Source: Thermoguttaceae bacterium
GTDB lineage: Bacteria > Planctomycetota > Planctomycetia > Pirellulales > Thermoguttaceae
Direction of reading: 5' to 3'
DNA length: 64,000 bases
Assembly (NCBI GenBank): GCA_025060325.1
Contig: JANXBW010000002.1
Coordinates: forward strand, 1 to 64,000
The notes beneath the pieces are model-generated. The model did no database searches. It saw only the letters and a list, made by a program, of their open reading frames with translations, and had not been told where the DNA came from. How positions within the stretch are numbered: position 1 is the first letter of the stretch; the number at the start of each line of letters is the position of its first letter. Positions 2,792 to 63,916 of the stretch are shown here, piece by piece. The position numbers were made by a program, and so were the translations under genes.

Positions 2792-3628
2792 TCAGACTTT
2801 GGGGACACTTTGCGCGGCGGGTGCATGGATCGAGCTGGTGGGCAGGCCTTGGGCAAGACGGGCATGATAACGGGCCAGAAAGGCTGAATAATCGGCCGGG
2901 GTATCGATTCCGCCGGAATGCTCCGCCACGATACCCACCTTGATGGTCATTCCGTGCCAAAGTGCCCGGAGCTGTTCAAGGCTTTCGGTAGCCTCAATGT
3001 CCGCCGGTGGGAGGCTCGTGAAACGAAAAAGCGACTTAACCCGGTACGCGTAAATCCCCACGTGCTGCCAAAAAAGAGGCGGCTCTTTTGTCAAAAGGGT
3101 ATCTTCCCACGTTCGCGGACAAGGAATCGGGCTTCGGCTGAAATAAAGGGCCGTCCCGTCAGTGCGGAATACCACTTTGACACAGGCTGGATCAAACAGG
3201 ACTTGCTTGGATCGAATAGGAGTAGCGAGGGTTGCCATATCCGCAATCGGATCGCTGGCAAGAAGATCAACGAGGTGATCAATGGCCGTCGGGTCGATCT
3301 CGGGCTCGTCCCCCTGAAGATTCACAACCACCTCCGGCACACCGCCGCCATTCTCAAGAAGGATTCGTACCGCCTGAGCCACTCGGTCAGTCCCGGATCT
3401 TAGGTTCACAGGAGTCAGGATAACCTGGGCACCAAAGGCAGCAGCCACCTCGGCAATTTCATGGCTATCGGTGGCAATGAAGACTGCCTCAGCGCGGCGC
3501 GACGCGCAAGCTGCCTCCCAGGTGTGGATGACAAGTGGCTTCCCCGTCTGTGCCAGGAGCATTTTGCGTGGAAGTCGTGTGGAATGGAGCCGAGCCGGGA
3601 TGACAATAAGTCCCCTTAGGCAGCTCAT
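2792..3628 (-). CDS. kdsB: 3-deoxy-manno-octulosonate cytidylyltransferase (CMP-Kdo synthetase)
   Basis: Activates Kdo with CTP to give CMP-Kdo for the inner core of lipopolysaccharide, so its presence argues for an LPS-bearing outer membrane. From ATG at 3628 the protein has 278 residues (family about 250). The N-terminal nucleotide-binding signature PARLHSTRLPRK is at 11-22, LRSGTDR at 76-82 and NLQGDEP at 103-109. I chose ATG 3628 because a GAGAGG motif sits about 10 bases upstream; a GTG at 3652 and an ATG at 3637 are also in frame. The last 20-25 residues extend beyond typical KdsB. pyrG follows on the same strand after a long gap. Confidence 0.95.
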   Translation of the reverse strand: MSCLRGLIVIPARLHSTRLPRKMLLAQTGKPLVIHTWEAACASRRAEAVFIATDSHEIAEVAAAFGAQVILTPVNLRSGTDRVAQAVRILLENGGGVPEVVVNLQGDEPEIDPTAIDHLVDLLASDPIADMATLATPIRSKQVLFDPACVKVVFRTDGTALYFSRSPIPCPRTWEDTLLTKEPPLFWQHVGIYAYRVKSLFRFTSLPPADIEATESLEQLRALWHGMTIKVGIVAEHSGGIDTPADYSAFLARYHARLAQGLPTSSIHAPAAQSVPKV

Positions 3629-53891: not shown

Positions 53892-54920
53892 GTGCAGATG
53901 GTAGAAACATTCCCGCAAGAGAAGCAACCTCCTGAGGAGCCTGAGCAGTTTCCTCCAATTTTGGATGCTTGGTACTTGACCGGTCCTACCGCCTCGGGGA
54001 AGACCGCCGTCGCGGTCGAACTTGCCCGCCGGCTGGGTGCGGAAATTATTTCCTTGGATTCGATGGCGGTTTACCGGGGAATGGACATCGGTACAGCGAA
54101 ACCCTCGCCAGAAGAGCGCCGTCTCATCCCGCATCATCTGGTCGACTGTGTGGATCCCAACGAGGAGTTCAGTGTCGCCCAATATCTGCAAAAAGCTCAT
54201 GAATTAGTCCAAGAAATCCGCGATCGGGGAAAAGTCCCGTTATTTGCCGGCGGAACACCTCTTTATTTGAAAGCCCTCTTGCGCGGTCTTTTTATCGGTC
54301 CGGCAGCGGATTGGGATCTACGACGGCAGCTTATGGCCAGGGCCGATCGCGAGGGGCCCGCCGCCCTCCACCGCGAGCTTGCTCAGGTCGATCCCACAAC
54401 AGCGGCGCGACTTCATCCACAAGATACTCGACGGATTGTCCGGGCTTTGGAAGTGTATCTGAAAACGGGTCGACCAATAAGCAAGTTGCAGCAGCAATTC
54501 AATCGAGAAAATCCGCCGGAGAAGTGCCGCGTCTTTGTGCTTCTTCGCACGCGAGAAGATCTTCGTAAGCGAATCGCTCAGCGAGTGGCTGGGATGCTCG
54601 AAAGTGGGCTTGTTGACGAAGTAAGAAAGCTCCTTAAACAATTTGGCTCGCTTAGCCGCACGGCCCGCCAGGCCGTCGGGTACCGGGAAGTATTAGCGTT
54701 TCTTGAAGGCCGATGCCGGCAGGAAGAGTTAGCGGATCTGATTGCCACCCACACTTGGCAACTTGCCCGAAGACAACTTATTTGGTTCCGAAGCTTGCGC
54801 GAGTGCCGATTTGTACCGGTAGGCCCCTTCGACGCCCCGGAGGAAATTGCCGAGCGAATCTTGGCCTTGGCGGCGGGCGATGGGCCGTCCCTGCGCGAGT
54901 CTTCCTCAAAACCTCTTTGA
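53892..54920 (+). CDS. miaA: tRNA dimethylallyltransferase
   Basis: Adds a dimethylallyl group to A37 of tRNAs reading U-starting codons. Up to 342 residues; the start is GTG 53892 or ATG 53898, neither with a good site. P-loop YLTGPTASGKTAVAVELARR at about 28-47, then IISLDSMAVYRGMDIGTAKPS, FAGGTPLYLKALLRG, DTRRIVRALEVY and the C-terminal TARQAVGYREVLAFLEG and TWQLARRQLIWFR. All are conserved MiaA motifs. mutS follows on the same strand after 315 bases. Confidence 0.96.
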   Translation: MQMVETFPQEKQPPEEPEQFPPILDAWYLTGPTASGKTAVAVELARRLGAEIISLDSMAVYRGMDIGTAKPSPEERRLIPHHLVDCVDPNEEFSVAQYLQKAHELVQEIRDRGKVPLFAGGTPLYLKALLRGLFIGPAADWDLRRQLMARADREGPAALHRELAQVDPTTAARLHPQDTRRIVRALEVYLKTGRPISKLQQQFNRENPPEKCRVFVLLRTREDLRKRIAQRVAGMLESGLVDEVRKLLKQFGSLSRTARQAVGYREVLAFLEGRCRQEELADLIATHTWQLARRQLIWFRSLRECRFVPVGPFDAPEEIAERILALAAGDGPSLRESSSKPL

Positions 54921-55235: not shown

Positions 55236-57887
55236 ATGTCCGAAAACCTCACCCCCATGATGAAGCAGTACATGGAGGCAAAGCAACTTTGCCCCGATGC
55301 TCTGCTTTTGTTCCGAATGGGGGATTTTTACGAGCTTTTCTTCGAAGATGCCAAAGTGGCTGCCCGAACGCTGGGGATCGCCCTAACCAGCCGGGAGAAA
55401 GGCCCCGATGCCCCTCCAATGGCGGGTTTTCCTTATCATCAGCTTGACACTTATCTCGCCCGGCTCATTGCCGCGGGTTTCCGTGTGGCGATTTGCGAAC
55501 AGGTCGAGGACCCCCGCGAGGCCAAAGGCCTGGTTCGCCGGGAAATCACTCGCATTGTCTCCCCAGGCACGATCACGGAGGAGCTTCTTCTCGATCCGCG
55601 GCGAAGTAACTACTTAGTCGCCCTCTGGCTGGAAGATTCGGCCGGCATTGCTTGGGCAGAGCTTACCACTGGCGCCTTTTTCGCCGGGACTGTGCCGCGA
55701 AAATTTGTCGCCGAGCAACTTGCGCGACTCATGCCGGCCGAGTGCCTCCTGCCGGAGTCCATGCGGCTAAACACTGAAGAAGCGTCAAGCGTGGGAGCGG
55801 TCACGAAAAGACCCGATTGGAGCTTCAGCCTGTCGGGTGCCATTGAACGGCTGACCCAGCAATTTGGCACGGTCAACCTCGAGGGTTTCGGTTTCGACCA
55901 CAGTCGCGATGCCCCAGCCTTGCGGGCAGCAGGGGCACTTGTTGACTATCTTTGGGAAACGCAGAAGACTTCCCTTCAGCATATTGATCGGCTTCTTCCG
56001 TTTCGGCTGGGGCAGTGTTTAGAGATTGATCCGGCCTCCCGGCATAGCTTGGAAATAATTCGCACTGCCCGGGAAGGCCGCCGCGAAGGATCGCTTCTTG
56101 GGGTCCTTGACCGGTGCGTGACGCCGATGGGATCCCGGCTACTTGCGGAGTGGCTAAGTTCCCCTCTTGTGGACGTTAAGGCAATCAACGATCGGCTCGA
56201 CGCTGTCCAAGAACTTGTCAGCCATCCGCAAACCTTGCAGGCTATTCGCGATAAACTTCGGTCTGTTTGCGATATTGAGCGGTTGTTAACACGAGCGATT
56301 ACCGGCCGGGCTGGACCGCGGGATCTTCGCACGTTGGCCGAAAGTCTGCAGAGCCTCCCCGAGATCCGCGAAAGCTTAGGCAGCCGAGAGTCGTCGCGCT
56401 TACAGGCGATCACCGCGGCGATTAGCCCCTGTCCCGAGCTTGCCTCGCGTTTACTTGCAGCACTTGAGGATAATTGTCCAAGTTCGCCTCGCGAGGGTGG
56501 TTTCATCCGGGGTGGTTATTCACCCGAACTTGATGAGCTTAGAGCAATCGGCCGGGGTGGGAAGGATTGGATTGCCCGTTATCAAGCGGAAGAATCCGCG
56601 CGGACGGGAATCCCGAATTTGCGCGTCGGGTACAACAAGGTCTTTGGCTACTACATCGAAGTGACCAAGAGTTACGAGGACAAAGTCCCGGCGCATTACA
56701 TCCGCAAACAAACCATCAAGAATGCCGAGCGGTATGTGACGCCTGAACTGAAGGCTTATGAGGAAAAAGTTCTGTCTGCGGAAGAAAAATCGCGAGAACT
56801 AGAATACGAGCTTTTCCTCGAGCTTCGATCCCAGGTGGTTGAGGCTCGCCACGAGCTCAAGCAAACAGCAGCTGCTTTGGCCGAGCTGGATGTTTACGCT
56901 TCGCTTGCCGATTTGGCCATCAAGCGGCGATACTGTCGGCCGCGGCTTGTTGATGAACCCGTGCTTCACATCGTGGAGGGTAGGCACCCTGTACTGGATG
57001 CCGGGGACCTGGGCGGTCGTTTCGTGCCGAATGACACACACATTGATGAGACGGCCGGGAAAATTCTCGTCATAACCGGGCCCAACATGGCCGGCAAGAG
57101 CACATACATTCGCCAGGTGGCGCTCATTGTTTTGATGGCGCAAATTGGAAGCTTTGTGCCGGCTCAACAGGCCACGATTGGGATTGCCGACCGCATTTTT
57201 GCTCGCGTCGGTGCAAGCGACGAGCTTGCCCGCGGACAGAGCACGTTTATGGTCGAAATGCTTGAGACAGCGCGAATCCTCAACCTGGCTACGTGCCGGA
57301 GTTTGGTGATCCTTGACGAAATCGGGCGCGGAACAAGTACTTATGATGGCATCTCGCTCGCTTGGGCCATCGTGGAATATCTCCACGACCACATTGATTG
57401 CCGAACTTTGTTTGCCACGCACTATCACGAACTGACAGACCTTGCCAAGGCGTGTGAAAAGGTGCGGAACTTCAACGTAGCGGTGAGGGAGTGGGGCGAT
57501 CAGGTGGTCTTCCTCCACAAAATTGTGGAAGGAGCGGCCGATAAGAGCTACGGTATTCACGTGGCCAGGTTGGCGGGGATTCCTAAGGCGGTCATCGAAC
57601 GGGCCAAACAGTTACTCGCTCAGTTAGAAAGCGATCATCTGGACACAAAGGGCCGGCCTAAACTGGCAAGGAAGCGACGCTGGGTTGACCGCGATAGCCC
57701 CTATCAGCTCATGCTGTTCGTGCCGGCTTCCCATCCAGTGCTGGAGGCTATCCGACAGCTTGATGTCAACGCGATTACACCTTTGAAGGCACTGGAACTA
57801 ATTGCGGAGTGGAAGGCTTCGCTCCTTCGCGACCAAGACGTCGCCCGTGAGGCACTGGGCGAGCAAGTTCCATCGACAAGTTCGTAA
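55236..57887 (+). CDS. mutS: DNA mismatch repair protein MutS
   Basis: 883 residues, standard MutS length. The N-terminal mismatch-binding domain has LLFRMGDFYELFFEDA with the intercalating Phe-x-Glu pattern near 28-35. Connector, lever and clamp domains follow, with GYNKVFGYYIEVTKS near 465-480. The C-terminal ATPase has Walker A GPNMAGKST near 615-622, STFMVEMLETARI, LVILDEIGRGTSTYDG (Walker B) and FATHYHELTDLA. It recognises mismatched DNA in the cytoplasm with MutL. mutL is not in the window. The start ATG at 55236 fits the family well. Confidence 0.98.
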   Translation: MSENLTPMMKQYMEAKQLCPDALLLFRMGDFYELFFEDAKVAARTLGIALTSREKGPDAPPMAGFPYHQLDTYLARLIAAGFRVAICEQVEDPREAKGLVRREITRIVSPGTITEELLLDPRRSNYLVALWLEDSAGIAWAELTTGAFFAGTVPRKFVAEQLARLMPAECLLPESMRLNTEEASSVGAVTKRPDWSFSLSGAIERLTQQFGTVNLEGFGFDHSRDAPALRAAGALVDYLWETQKTSLQHIDRLLPFRLGQCLEIDPASRHSLEIIRTAREGRREGSLLGVLDRCVTPMGSRLLAEWLSSPLVDVKAINDRLDAVQELVSHPQTLQAIRDKLRSVCDIERLLTRAITGRAGPRDLRTLAESLQSLPEIRESLGSRESSRLQAITAAISPCPELASRLLAALEDNCPSSPREGGFIRGGYSPELDELRAIGRGGKDWIARYQAEESARTGIPNLRVGYNKVFGYYIEVTKSYEDKVPAHYIRKQTIKNAERYVTPELKAYEEKVLSAEEKSRELEYELFLELRSQVVEARHELKQTAAALAELDVYASLADLAIKRRYCRPRLVDEPVLHIVEGRHPVLDAGDLGGRFVPNDTHIDETAGKILVITGPNMAGKSTYIRQVALIVLMAQIGSFVPAQQATIGIADRIFARVGASDELARGQSTFMVEMLETARILNLATCRSLVILDEIGRGTSTYDGISLAWAIVEYLHDHIDCRTLFATHYHELTDLAKACEKVRNFNVAVREWGDQVVFLHKIVEGAADKSYGIHVARLAGIPKAVIERAKQLLAQLESDHLDTKGRPKLARKRRWVDRDSPYQLMLFVPASHPVLEAIRQLDVNAITPLKALELIAEWKASLLRDQDVAREALGEQVPSTSS

Positions 57888-58016: not shown

Positions 58017-58280
58017 ATGGCCGAAGTGATTTTGCCTACTTTGCTTGCAAAGGAGTTGGGGGGAATTCGCCAGCTTGATGTTCCTGGCAGTTCGGTGGCT
58101 GAGCTAGTAAACGCCATCAACGCCAAACATCCTGGGTTTCGGGACCTTGTCTGCTCAGGGGAAAAGCTGCGGCCCATCTTTCGGGTTGTGATCGATGGCC
58201 GAATTGCCCGGGAGGGTTTAGCCTCGCCGGTTCAGCCCACTAGTCGGGTGGAAATTCTTCCCGCTTTCGGCGGCGGCTAA
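58017..58280 (+). CDS. MoaD/ThiS-like ubiquitin-fold sulfur carrier
   Basis: 87 residues from ATG 58017 behind GAGAGGA. Beta-grasp layout of MoaD/ThiS proteins: an initial strand (VILPTLLAKELGG), a helix with SVAELVNAINAKHP, central strands (LRPIFRVVIDGRI) and a C-terminal EILPAFGGG. The Gly-Gly tail is the site adenylated and thiocarboxylated in family members; here three glycines end the protein. It could serve molybdopterin, thiazole or other sulfur transfer (for example cysteine or thio-metabolite synthesis). No moaE, moeB, thiF or thiG gene is adjacent. It converges with the decayed operon. Confidence 0.88.
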   Translation: MAEVILPTLLAKELGGIRQLDVPGSSVAELVNAINAKHPGFRDLVCSGEKLRPIFRVVIDGRIAREGLASPVQPTSRVEILPAFGGG

Positions 58281-58326: not shown

Positions 58327-61300
58327 TCAACATCGTGCTACCGCCCTTACAGCCCTAGAGTCCATCGCCTTTTGCAAAGCTAAACATCGAAAAGTTCGAG
58401 CGACCGATTGGCCGAAAAACGCTAGGTCGTTTACACACTGGAAATCAAAAACACCCAGATAAAGTAAATGGTTGGTGTTAATTGTCACTTCCGCAGACTG
58501 ATCGTCGCCGGTGAGGGACCAGCGGCGCCACAGTCGGCGCGGAGGTGTCCCGTTGATTTCGGAACGCTTGACTCGCCAGGACTGTCCGTTGAGTAACTCT
58601 TCGGCCCGATTTTGGTACAGTTGGAAAAGCGGGGCGCTGGTGCCCAACGCCCGCCACCTATCCCCTTCCCACACGAGGACTTGTTCCCGGCCCGAGCCTT
58701 GCCTCTTGAGAGCGGCAAAGAGCCAGCTGCCGCGCTTGTCGTCCGCGACCACTTCCAAGGTGCCGCCTGCTTCCCAGTCATAAGACGGGTCACCGGCAAG
58801 GTAAATGGCATCCACACCCCCCTCCCCCAAAGCGGAGAATGCCCGCCCGGCTTATCGCCCAGAACACCCCTTTCTAACTTGCGATAGCCACCCATTGGTC
58901 AACGGTAAGCCGTCCACATGTCCGATCGAAAGAGGTGCCGACATTCACGAGCACAGCTCCGCTGCCGCCCGGGTAACGTAATTCGATGTTATTGTCGTCA
59001 TGCCAGCGACAGTATTTTCCGTCCTACAAAGGTGTTCCCGCCCGGCGAACAGCACTCGCCGGAGGACTGGACCACTGTCCGCTTTGCAAAGCCCACACCT
59101 GTTTACCATCGCGACTAATAAGGGCGGCGCTGCCGACCGTCGAACCGGCAAGGGTGCCGGCATCTGCGGCACGAGCTTCCGCGGGCACCGCTTCGGCTCC
59201 AATAATTTCTGCCGGGGGACCTAATTCATCGCCTCGGGCATACCGAACTGTACCGTCTGGTGTGTATAAGATAATTTCGCTGGGCGTGAGCGACATACCT
59301 ATAGGCTGGTCAAAACCGAAACCACCCCCGCCTAACCGAGCTGTCACTCGTTTGCCTGAGCCAGTCTCAAGTGTTAACGCTTTGTAAACGGTATCGCTCA
59401 CCAGGCCCCAACGCGGCCCTAAGGCTGAGCGCCAACTGACTGATTGTTCCCAAGTAGCGGCCTGAATGATGCTCTGTTGCTCGGTTGCACTGGGGGTTCG
59501 CATCCCCCGGCCCGGATCCCATATTTCGTAAACGTTCCCCGGCCAATTTACACCAAGGAGCGATCCCCCGATCACAGTTGGCCCTTTGCCGCTTGGCCTC
59601 GGCGGCTGGGAAAATGCCGCCACGGAAAAGCCACCGCGGTCATTCCGAAAAACAATTGCCCAATCCACAACCCTACGAGTAGATCACCATTCGCGCTGGC
59701 AAGGCCGGTTGCCCACTGCCAACAAACCTTATACTGATTGCCTTGTGCCTAGGGACGAAGTGTCCCGGTGATCATCCGCTGGCCATCACCTAAGCAGGTA
59801 ATCTCCAGCCGACTATGGGGATCGACTGTCTGCCACGGGCCCTGCGGCGGGATTGCAACCGCGAACGCTTTGCCGTGGAATTCAAAGGCGGACGGCCGGG
59901 CAAAAACCCGGACCACATCTACGCTTGACTCGCCCGAGGGTAGTTCACGCCATGTTTTCTTATCGAATATCCGCACGCTCGGGGCTGCGGTGCTGATATA
60001 CACATAGCGATCATCAACAGCGAGGTCGACAAAATTATCTTCCGGTAATTTTCCGCCCAACAAATCCGTCCAGGCGGTCGAACCTGTCGATCGAACTCGC
60101 ACGGACCCGTGAGAGGGCACCATGATCCACCTCCCTTGCGGATTCGGCCTGCTGCGTTGGAGTAAGCTGTTCTCCAGGGCGCAAGGGCCGGTACTCCCCG
60201 CGGTTTGTATCGTAAACAAGTAGTGAGCCGTCTGGTTCACTTGTCAACAGCACGCCACCAATCATTACCAGTTGACGCCGGAAGTTAGCGGCACCTGCAA
60301 ACTGGCGAACCTGACGCCATCCTACGGTCCCTTCGGCCCGATGCCAGATGGACCCATCGGCCAGGGACACAATAAGCTGCTTGCCCACTGCTGCGGCAGC
60401 CATTAAGCTGCCTGGGCCGCTTGCCGGTAACGCAACCTCAAAACCCTGGACCGCTCGTTGGCAATTAGCGCCCTCCGCCCTCGTCGAAATCAGAACTCCC
60501 GCCTGATCAAGTGCCCAAATTTCCTCCCCAAAGAAGTTGACATTCCACAAGGGCCCTCCAAAGGCTGTAAACGGCGCATGCTCGGGGCCAATTTGAAAAA
60601 CTTGCCTTCCGCGCGAACCATCCTGGGTGATAAGAAAGAGCTGCGATCCCGGCCAAGCAAATCGCTCGGCCTGACCCTTAACCGTCCCCAGAAACCCCCA
60701 AGCCAGCCGGCCTGGGTCGAACGTCACCACAGCCGTTTGCTGCCCTTGCCCGAGGGCAAGAACCAATTGGCCTTGCCCCTCTGTCGCAGCGGCAATCGCC
60801 GGCCAACTGCTTCCCAACAGTCGCCCAGACGAGTCAACGATCGCTGTCCACTGCTGCCCGTCGGCCGTGGCTCTCACTTCGGCGTTACCCAAAAGGATCA
60901 CTAAGTATTCGTCAACAACTTCCGCATCTTGCGCGGCTTGGGACAAAGTTATTTGCGGGAAAGTCCGCCCCAGTAGCTCGGCCCGACTGGCCCCCTGAAA
61001 CAAGCTGTAAATGGCCCGAGACAAGTCGCACTAAACCACTTTTTTCGTCAACAACGAAGTCGGCCACTAGCCCCTCCGTCCTATAAGTTTGCCACCGGGG
61101 CGGGTTTGCCTCGATCAGCTGATAAAGGCTCATACGCTGCGGGGCGTAGGCCCAAAGCCCCCCGACACCAAGCCGAAATTCTTCCACCTGAGTGGGGGTC
61201 TGGCGAACCCAATGCCGTCCACCCATCGAATAAGCCCAAAGTTCCCCATCGCTTCCCGCCCCGAATAGCCACACATCGTTCCCGATGGACCTTTCCGCGA

Positions 61301-62656
61301 CGGCCACTGATTGGCCAGGCGTGTTCACCGAGCCGGTTACCCCCGGCCCAAGAAAGAGGGTCCGACCGGTTCCGCCGCTCACCGATGCTGTAAACACCGA
61401 GGAATAGCACCCCGCCTGAGCGTCCGATTGTTTGTCGGTTATACCCGCAAGCACCCTGCCCGAGCCTGAGTCCCAGGCATCGCATATGGTCGCCCCAGAG
61501 ACGAGACTTCGCAACAAACGCCACTGCTCGTTGCCACGCTCGTAAATGAGCACATTTTTCGGGCCTACCACAACCATGTGGTCGGGCGTGGGGAATAAGA
61601 TTCGTCGCCACTGACCCACTGGAGGAGTTCCCCCACCCTGCCCTCCTAGGTCTATTGTTTGCCATTCTTCGCGGCCGGACGAACCCTCGTCATAGCCGTG
61701 GACAGTTCCCTGGCTAGCCAGTAAATAGAGACCACCAGCCCGCTCGGCTGCTCCGATAACTTCCTGGCCTCGAAGGCCGCTGGCCGATGGCGACACCCAC
61801 AGCCTTAAGCGATCGGGATCATCATCTGGGATTCCGTACACACCCCCTGAAGGCGAGAGCAAACCGACTCACCTTTCGCCATCAGCTGAAATGGCTCGGG
61901 CGGGAATTGGTGGCTCTTGACTGCCCGGGTCGCCGATAGGCTCGAAATCATCCTCGGAATCATCAGCGCCCGGAACGAAGCGAAATACTCCCCCAGGTCC
62001 CCCAAAAGCCGAGCTAGCCAATATGTAAAGAAACTCGCCGGTTGGGGCAAAAAGACAAGCTGGATCGGCCGTCAGTGTTGCCCCAGGTGATATCCGTAGA
62101 TTAAAACTTCCCCAGCTAGAGAGGACTGGTCATAGCGATGTAACCCCTGCTCATCCCCTAAAAAAGCCGGCCTTGGAACTCGCATGCCGCCACCACACTA
62201 CCCACATCTTGGGCTAACGGAGCGCCGATGAGCACCCGACGCCTACTTGCGTTAGGAAGCCAAACCAGCCGCAGCCGGTCTCTTGACTGACCCGAGCGGA
62301 TCAAAGCTACTAACCCAATGGCGCAGGCTTCAATATTTGGTACACAGTCGTCCACAAGACGACCAAAATAGTGGTGATGGCCGCCGGCAGATACCAGCTT
62401 CGGTGGGGCCAAATGAGAAGCAGGGCTGCAGCAGCCAGCCCTAACCCAGCCAGCCACAGACCATTCCTCAGAACCTGGAGGTGACAACGGGTAGGACGGT
62501 CTCATCATGGAAACGGCCAATCTACGTGCCCCCGAAGAGCCGATGAGGACCAATCAACGCTAAAAATATTCCCCCGCCGATCCCGATGGCGACCGCAGCA
62601 AGAAAAAGACGTCCGTGAATGGCCCATTTTTTCGGTGATATTCCTATTGAGGTCAT
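58327..62656 (-). pseudogene. Decayed gene for a membrane-anchored beta-propeller-like protein, about 1,440 codons
   Basis: The start is ATG 62656, 10 bases after a GAGG motif, overlapping the stop of the upstream gene (ATGA). Frame 0 reads MTSIGISPKKWAIHGRLFLA then a hydrophobic helix. Two further helices (NGLWLAGLGLAAAALLLIW and WYLPAAITTILVVLWTTVY) follow in another frame at about 62468-62320. The rest is repeats of short strands with Trp and Gly-Asp motifs, as in propellers (LGDEQGLHRYD, GSLLVYDTNRGEYRPL, DDRYVYISTAAPSVRIFD). Frame breaks lie near 62469, 62310, 62160-62165 (T6), 62110-62113 (G4), 61030, 60128, 59672 and 58845. In-frame stops are TAG 62524, TGA 61871, TAG 59751, TAG 59026 and TAG 58876. 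Coding-like sequence continues after each stop. The final stop is TGA at 58329. The alternative is sequencing or assembly error. Confidence 0.75.
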
Positions 62657-63381
62657 CTGGCGCTTACCTCAACGCCATGCGGCCTGGTACCTCCCGCCAG
62701 CCATAGAAGCGGTTCGAATTCCGGATACCCTCCCATCTGACGGTCAACTTGAGGTTTCTCCTGTTCCCGGTCGGACTCAATCAGGACGGACCTTTGAACC
62801 TGGCTATGTCAACGTGTCCTTCCATTGGCCGGTCAAGCTTGGCGAACGGGTAGCGTTCGCCACTGACGAGTGGACCAAAGCCGCAATCCCCGCCAACCAG
62901 CCTGATGTCACGGGTTTTCTTGCCCGCTTTTCGCCACCTCTTCACCACATGAGCTTTTTAAGAGGGTCAGTTGACTTTGCACCTGAGCCATCCGGTTCCG
63001 CAGGTCCTCAATCCCCTGCTCTAGCTGAGCCAGTAATTGCGCGAGGCTCAGGTATGTCTTTTCCCAAGAGTTAAGTCCACCGGGAAGCTGGTCTTTCCCG
63101 ATCCATTGGCCGATGCGACGGGCCCTCCAGCCGAGATTTTGCGCGGCAAAGCTATGCGACGTCATCACTCCCTTTGCGTCCTTTGTCCTGTTTACAGCAT
63201 CTGCAAGATCCTTTGTCTCGGGGGCTTTTTTCCGCTCCCACTGGAAGGCAAGCTTCAAAATAGGAATGGAAAGAATGCGGCGCCGTAAGCCAGCCCAAAA
63301 CACCCGGAGCCACACACTGGGAAGAAGGCAGTAAAGAGCGGGGCCTATCTGTGGGCAAAACCGCCCGATTCTGAAAAACAT
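62653..63381 (-). pseudogene. Disrupted gene, membrane/coiled-coil protein
   Basis: The start is ATG 63381 with GGAGAAAG upstream. The first 157 codons are intact: a basic, hydrophobic N-terminus (IGPALYCLLPSVWLRVFWAG), a charged middle and a coiled coil (LAQLLAQLEQGIEDLRNRM). The frame then stops at 62910, but a plausible continuation (VTSGWLAGIAALVHSSVAN) exists one frame over. It is interrupted by TAG at 62806, and after about 62775 the original frame resumes (LIESDREQEKPQVDRQ...) to TGA at 62655-62653, which overlaps the next gene's ATG. Two single-base shifts and one TAG therefore separate it from a full product of about 240 residues. A shorter intact 157-residue protein is also possible. 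Family unknown. Confidence 0.55.
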
Positions 63382-63393
63382 ATCTTTCTCCTC

Positions 63394-63916
63394 TCACCCA
63401 TCGTTGACTTGCTCAGCGTGAATTGATTGGCTTTCGCGGCCCTGTCGTTTAACTACACCCATGCGGGAAAATGTCCGCGTGGAAGCTGCCATGCGGATCT
63501 TCAGGATTCTAATAATCAACATGCGAATATATTGCCGCGGTTGCCCGATGGAGAGCACCGTTTGAAGCAAGACCTTGCGTCGGTGTGGGTCAAGTTTCAC
63601 TAGACCCAGCACCTTTGGACCCAACTTGACGATGGCCAGCGTGCCCCCCGCACAACAAGAGCACACGCAACAACCTTCTCACTCGGCGCGCAAATGGTCG
63701 AAGATCTTGCTTCACGATCTGGCGGACATCCGCCAAACCATCACGTACATCTTGCAATTTACGGTTTAGTTCGGCCATCTTTGACTTCCAACCGTTTTCA
63801 AGTTCCCTCAGGGTTTGGCGGGCCTGGGGCAGTTCAAAAACCTCCTCCCCACGGGCTGATTGAGAACCCTGTTCTTTAATCTGTGGATCCGCTGGGCTAA
63901 TACAAACATGATTCAT
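63394..63916 (-). pseudogene. Frameshifted gene, small coiled-coil protein with a membrane segment
   Basis: The start is ATG 63916 with AAGGG upstream. The first part is charged and helical (LRELENGWKSKMAELNRK, then LQDVRDGLADVRQIVKQDL), followed by a hydrophobic segment (LLRVLLLCGGTLAIV) that is complete only if the frame changes at a run of six G (63644-63649). The second frame continues VKLGPKVLGLVKLDPHRR... and ends at TGA 63396-63394, 12 bases before the start of the next gene. Restoring one frame gives about 174 residues. Unknown family. Its short spacing to the next gene and shared coiled-coil character suggest one operon. Confidence 0.55.

What the first reader, a model, noticed from the sequence alone, without database searches (positions are those of the whole stretch)
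58327..62656. Propeller-like membrane protein gene preserved in outline but broken by 8 frameshifts and 5 stops
Reading the minus strand from ATG 62656 and switching frame where needed gives one continuous protein-like sequence of about 1,440 codons: three membrane helices, then a propeller-type region. Every break is a single-base indel, several at short homopolymers (T6 at 62160-62165, G4 at 62110-62113). Coding-like sequence continues past every stop. The other genes in the window show no such damage. Either this is a recently silenced large surface or signalling protein or the sequence is locally unreliable.
Basis: partly seen in the sequence, partly recalled or inferred. Interest (0 to 1): 0.6.

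Follow-up and report, generated by a model that had tools for sequence, protein, structure and literature searches.

The report
Decayed remnant of MoxR–propeller gene cluster
What looked like one broken membrane gene is the leftover of a whole gene cluster, probably an anti-invader system, that a sister bacterium still carries intact at the same place and this one seems to have lost recently.

Summary
The damage is real and local. A same-genus genome (G001; record title "uncultured Thermoguttaceae bacterium") has an intact cluster at the same chromosomal place: MoxR-like ATPase, D (525 aa), A (1,065 aa), two small frames, B (573 aa, three membrane helices) and C (3,279 aa, membrane-anchored propeller protein). 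MoxR and E-G were not found at this place; A and C have no second copy, and no similar MoxR was found. Under the same aligner, 31 other window genes show no break, so sequencing error is unlikely. Few stops suggest recent loss. The intact MoxR is nearest in Pfam to the bpMoxR family of MoxR-vWA-beta-propeller ternary systems, proposed anti-invader systems, but at an intermediate score, and a vWA component was not demonstrated: membership is open. The relic is ordinary; the rare intact cluster looks like a divergent variant of a known kind.

The parts
62316..62656 (-). Remnant of gene B (three-helix membrane protein): intact residues 7-114 of 573; 1 frameshift, 1 stop
   Evidence: start codon at 62656 read directly
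58414..62343 (-). Remnant of gene C (giant beta-propeller protein): intact residues 784-2167 of 3,279; 6 frameshifts, 4 stops, one 69-residue gap; homology stops at 58414
62316..62343 (-). Junction: B residue 114 meets C residue 784; about 4.1 kb of the intact order is missing (inferred deletion)
   Evidence: coordinates against the intact order
62908..63381 (-). 157-codon open frame, relative of a 164-codon frame between A and B in G001 (E 1e-9); still open
63659..63832 (-). Trace of a second small frame between A and B (58 residues aligned, 29% identity, E 4e-7, composition correction off)
58017..58280 (+). Intact flank: ThiS/MoaD-like small protein, next to mutS (55236-57887) and miaA (53892-54920); same order in G001

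Best explanation
The feature is the decaying relic of a gene cluster that the genus shares at one site (MoxR-like AAA+ ATPase, D, coiled-coil A, two small frames, three-helix B, giant membrane-anchored propeller C). Shown: synteny with the intact cluster, kb-sized losses, frameshifts and stops over C, B, A and D, no second copy of A or C in the genome, and no similar MoxR. Inferred mechanism of the intact system: the C propeller array, with a hydrophobic segment near each end and perhaps working with B, senses something at or outside the membrane; the MoxR ring with D and A remodels the complex when a threshold is passed, as proposed for MoxR-vWA ternary anti-invader systems. In the window's lineage the system lost MoxR and most likely has no function; small indels, stops and large deletions are removing it.
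For: Intact frames and gene order in G001; relic pieces in the same order; same outer flanks on both sides: miaA-mutS-ThiS/MoaD-like and isomerase-RNase E/G-TIGR03936-ptsI; no other A or C match in G000; best of G000's 7 MoxR-type matches 53 bits to PF20030, against 133.9 for G001's in the same search; 31 other window genes unbroken, 0 breaks in 13,172 codons against 16 in 2,516 relic codons; bpMoxR is the best Pfam hit of the intact MoxR, E 4e-51; P-loop GPPGTAKS in 4 of 4 aligned MoxR proteins, the GXXXTAKS variant named in PMC7159879; same gene order MoxR-D-A-x-C in a distant planctomycete, G377.
Against: Against the ternary-system part: no vWA domain by Pfam in A, B, D, E, F or G; the D model has no confidence and a profile comparison of D with one ivWA protein found nothing; G001's MoxR (133.9 bits) is nearer to three MoxR genes of other genomes at 120-122 bits, with no A, C or D match on the fetched stretches, than to the canonical 324-343; NCBIfam's best match is the ordinary RavA family, far under its cut-off; PADLOC gives only coiled-coil matches in A. 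Against completeness: C's first 280 residues, B, D, E, F and G were not sought across the whole genome. Reads were not available.
Confidence: 0.86

Rival explanations
1. Sequencing or assembly error: the gene is intact in the organism and the consensus is wrong here.
Against: 31 other window genes, 13,172 codons, show no frameshift or stop with the same aligner; errors do not remove MoxR, the ends of B, C and D, or bring B to C and D to A. The breaks follow the cluster.
Confidence: 0.04
2. A compact functional descendant: B's membrane part fused to C's middle, and A, still made protein in this lineage until lately or still do, with only the later indels as damage.
For: In G377 membrane helices and propellers are in one 4,208-codon frame; codon-position GC of the relic is still gene-like; the 157-codon small frame is open.
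Against: 5 stops and 7 frameshifts inside the joined frame; C's homology stops at residue 2167 of 3,279; D's first 223 residues abut A from residue 136; no MoxR at the site.
Confidence: 0.05
3. The fragments are a partial horizontal acquisition that never worked in this genome.
For: The cluster is rare and scattered in the phylum, and absent from the third genome of the genus.
Against: Same outer flanking genes as the intact cluster in a same-genus genome, so the simplest reading is one shared ancestral locus.
Confidence: 0.05

Closest known systems
MoxR-vWA-beta-propeller ternary systems (Kaur et al. 2020, PMC7159879; outline, twelve passages and section 21 seen)
   Same: MoxR whose best Pfam match is bpMoxR, with GXXXTAKS P-loop; membrane-anchored propeller component; planctomycetes among the hosts
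   Different: No vWA-propeller component and no bpX domain detected; the propeller protein has 3,279-4,208 codons; in one and the same search G001's MoxR scores 133.9 bits to PF20030 against 324-343 in five other genomes; in the window itself the cluster is a relic without MoxR
FtsH ternary systems (same paper, section 21)
   Same: Similar P-loop; a roughly 500-aa protein sits right after MoxR, as in G029
   Different: No AAA-type hit in E, F or G at E<=0.1; no ivWA hit in D by HMMER
RavA (NCBIfam NF010054)
   Same: Best NCBIfam match of the intact MoxR, E 1e-39
   Different: 136.7 bits, far under the cut-off of 681; surrounding genes other than the RavA-ViaA pair (ViaA recalled, not searched)
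Periplasmic sensor propellers of hybrid two-component systems (BT4663 type)
   Same: Top Foldseek match of the C model
   Different: No kinase hit in C by Pfam; sequence identity about 12%

Membership tests
MoxR-vWA-beta-propeller ternary system (intact relative G001) | MoxR AAA+ of the bpMoxR clade | tested here: inconclusive
   PF20030 is the best Pfam hit, E 4.3e-51, 173 bits in two stretches; G377 180.9 bits. But the cut-off is loose (60 of 60 genomes and 12 of 14 controls pass), and in that search G001's 133.9 bits lie between canonical 324-343 and ordinary MoxR at about 70 or less; no tree was made
MoxR-vWA-beta-propeller ternary system (intact relative G001) | P-loop variant GXXXTAKS (often, by the paper) | tested here: met
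   GPPGTAKS in 4 of 4 aligned sequences
MoxR-vWA-beta-propeller ternary system (intact relative G001) | vWA component carrying a propeller | tested here: inconclusive
   No vWA or bpX hit in A, B, C, D, E, F, G by HMMER; hhalign of D with one ivWA protein: probability 1.3; D model pLDDT 33
MoxR-vWA-beta-propeller ternary system (intact relative G001) | third component with membrane segment, TPR and propeller | tested here: inconclusive
   Hydrophobic segments in B and C, propeller fold in C; no TPR hit by Pfam in B or C, helical repeats of B not modelled
MoxR-vWA-beta-propeller ternary system (window relic) | MoxR present | tested here: not met
   No match at the locus; the best of 7 MoxR-type matches in G000 is 53 bits to PF20030
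FtsH ternary system (intact relative G001) | double FtsH-type ATPase | tested here: not met
   No AAA hit in E, F or G by Pfam at E<=0.1, nor in B, C; A's weak AAA_13 hit (E 0.069) lies in its coiled coil
Pseudogene cluster | homology to an intact gene set at the syntenic place with several independent disabling changes | tested here: met

The most novel reading that the evidence does not exclude
The intact cluster is a further, undescribed class of MoxR-centred system: MoxR, a partner D, a conserved-domain coiled-coil protein A and a giant membrane-anchored propeller protein (B/C) of up to 4,208 codons, scattered thinly in Planctomycetota; the window catches one copy in the act of being lost.
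Probability: 0.4. Interest if true: 0.5.

Novelty: new variant of a known kind. Interest (0 to 1): 0.3.

Why it matters
As a pseudogene it is ordinary. Its value is that it pointed to an intact, rare MoxR-propeller cluster with a giant membrane-anchored propeller protein, of which the libraries I searched (Pfam; NCBIfam without C; PADLOC with half of C) name only the ATPase and a DUF1598 in F. Intact and relic copies sit at one site in one genus, a natural before-and-after pair for studying how such systems are lost.

Tried and rejected
Sequencing error: judged unlikely after the control (and 45, 79). Separate short genes: the C region is one frame in G001. A second copy elsewhere in G000: none found for A or C. 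DNA-level similarity of the A-B spacer: nothing beyond chance; protein comparison was needed. The region upstream of D's relic (67614-69286) shows no convincing match to E, F, G or MoxR. vWA by fold prediction of D: pLDDT 33, no use. Gathering ivWA proteins for a profile: 1 of 146 genomes, too few. Sequence autocorrelation of C for blade length: no clear lag (best z 2.8), so the propeller claim rests on the model, whose mean pLDDT is 56.5 and whose global TM-scores are low. The three other genomes with a middling bpMoxR score (G014, G017, G020) had no A, C or D match on the stretches fetched, two of them contigs under 7 kb. PADLOC: only coiled-coil matches in A. Literature (listings only): 'bpMoxR' 0 papers, 'Thermoguttaceae' with 'pseudogene' 0 papers, a broad search on loss of defence systems, nothing specific among the 10 of 107 listed.

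Full report
What was checked. The finding describes a minus-strand gene from ATG 62656 to about 58327 in the window (G000:C22:1-64000; 4.78 Mb genome in 89 contigs). A search of 40 related genomes with its best open piece matched 2 of 40: the genome itself and G001, same genus, where the match lies in an open frame of 3,282 codons (3,279 from the first start codon). G001's contig has the same length as CALKER010000006.1, titled 'uncultured Thermoguttaceae bacterium', so the window is from a relative of that organism.

The intact cluster. In G001, reading the minus strand, the order is G (977 aa), F (426, DUF1598), E (611), MoxR (398), D (525), A (1,065, long coiled coil), two small frames (about 124 and 164 codons stop to stop), B (573, three hydrophobic segments) and C (3,279). 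It lies between miaA-mutS-ThiS/MoaD-like-FAD oxidoreductase-ferredoxin on one side and a xylose-isomerase-like gene, RNase E/G, TIGR03936 and ptsI on the other. Whether E, F and G belong to the system is open: G377 showed no match to them.

The relic. In the window's genome the same outer flanks enclose only scraps. A frameshift-aware alignment gives: C residues 784-2167 at 62343-58414, 6 frameshifts and 4 stops in 1,287 codons; B residues 7-114 at 62635-62316, 1 and 1 in 106; A residues 136-1057 at 67007-64216, past the window's end, 3 and 0 in 907; D residues 8-223 at 67614-66967, 0 and 1 in 216. Of four flanking genes in that call, the isomerase and ptsI gave no break, RNase E/G 1 frameshift and the TIGR03936 protein 1 stop; both have long open frames in the window's contig, and I read the two as alignment run past the gene's true start or end. 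The B and C pieces abut, so the 'one gene' is B's front on C's middle; D and A abut in the same way. Besides traces of the two small frames, no match to MoxR, E, F or G was found in the 94 kb searched. The FAD-ferredoxin pair of G001 has no DNA match in G000.

Real, not an artefact. As control I took 100 kb of G001 beside the cluster: of 60 ORFs of at least 200 aa, 35 matched the window at E<=1e-20, each as one piece in one frame. I dropped 2 antisense shadow ORFs, which showed stops, and 2 overlapping paralogues. With the same aligner as for the relic, the remaining 31 genes have 0 frameshifts and 0 stops in 13,172 codons, against 16 in the relic's 2,516 (Fisher p 2e-13). An earlier version by plain tblastn had 1 stop, past a gene's own end.

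Age. Codon-position GC in the relic is still gene-like and close to G001's. Stops arise from about 4% of random substitutions in this sequence, so 6 stops in 2,516 codons correspond to about 0.02 neutral substitutions per site since loss; with so few stops this is good to a few-fold only. Third positions differ between the two genomes at 0.68-0.70 in the relic and 0.61-0.66 in the four flanking genes, first and second positions at 0.29-0.47 against 0.08-0.39. So the low protein identity (41-43%) mostly predates the loss; the flanks are 80-84% identical, except the TIGR03936 protein at 53%, so the cluster evolved fast while it worked.

What the proteins are. C is all-beta; the AlphaFold model of residues 784-1785 (mean pLDDT 56.5, best stretch about 340-800 of the model) has tandem propellers at the top of its Foldseek list (BT4663 sensor domain, Utp21) and VIA-align Z up to 12.8 against propellers (rmsd 7.1, 230 aligned). 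Sequence models alone were weak. C has a hydrophobic segment near each end (42-60 and 3251-3269). The intact MoxR's best Pfam match is bpMoxR, its best NCBIfam match RavA, under cut-off; its P-loop is GPPGTAKS. Kaur et al. 2020 (PMC7159879; outline, twelve passages and section 21 seen) describe GXXXTAKS as frequent in the beta-propeller and FtsH systems, and a third component with membrane segment, TPR and propeller. Canonical systems in G030 and G039 show bpX0, bpX1 and bpX3 domains, which the present proteins do not. D and A are conserved in two distant planctomycete genomes, G203 and G377; in G377 the order is MoxR-D-A-354 aa-C, with C a 4,208-codon frame carrying several hydrophobic segments ahead of the propeller part. 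B itself gave no match there, so the idea that B's part is fused to C in G377 rests on layout only.

Distribution. A was found in 2 of 60 relatives, 4 of 392 genomes of the phylum, one of them (G354) by coiled coil only, 2 of 396 of the order, and 1 of 98 relatives of G377, namely G377 itself. These sets overlap, and the counts include G000 and other already known genomes. A pattern scan of 84,980 species found 3 loci, a lower bound as it used one 9-residue pattern. G002, same genus, has the flanking genes on two contigs and no match to A or to C; B and D were sought there only on those two stretches.

Mechanism. Shown: a multi-gene relic at a shared locus with large losses and disabling changes. 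Inferred: the intact system is a MoxR-driven, membrane-linked sensor complex of the kind proposed for defence; its loss took the ATPase along with the ends of the structural genes. Function was not tested.

Noticed in passing
L044/L072 (G377 contig C683, about 10.2-22.9 kb): A single open frame of 4,208 codons with several N-terminal hydrophobic segments followed by C-like sequence, in a groundwater planctomycete MAG.
   Followed up: partly
L004:735-3464: FAD oxidoreductase and polyferredoxin-like pair between the ThiS/MoaD-like gene and C in G001 has no DNA match in the window's genome.
   Followed up: partly
Pfam PF20030 (bpMoxR): The family's curated cut-off looks too loose: all 60 genomes and 12 of 14 control genomes exceed it, mostly at scores of about 45-70 bits.
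   Followed up: partly
contig C22 72.2-72.9 kb (beyond the window; L005:18193-18939): The TIGR03936 radical-SAM-associated protein is only 53% identical between the two genomes while its neighbours are 80-84%.
   Followed up: no
contig C22 67744-68109 (beyond the window; L005:13745-14110): 121-codon frame upstream of the D relic, no Pfam or NCBIfam match and no convincing one to G001's E, F, G or MoxR.
   Followed up: partly
window 62908-63381: Small frame, weakly coiled-coil-like, is still open although every long gene of the cluster around it is broken or cut; probably chance survival of a short gene.
   Followed up: partly
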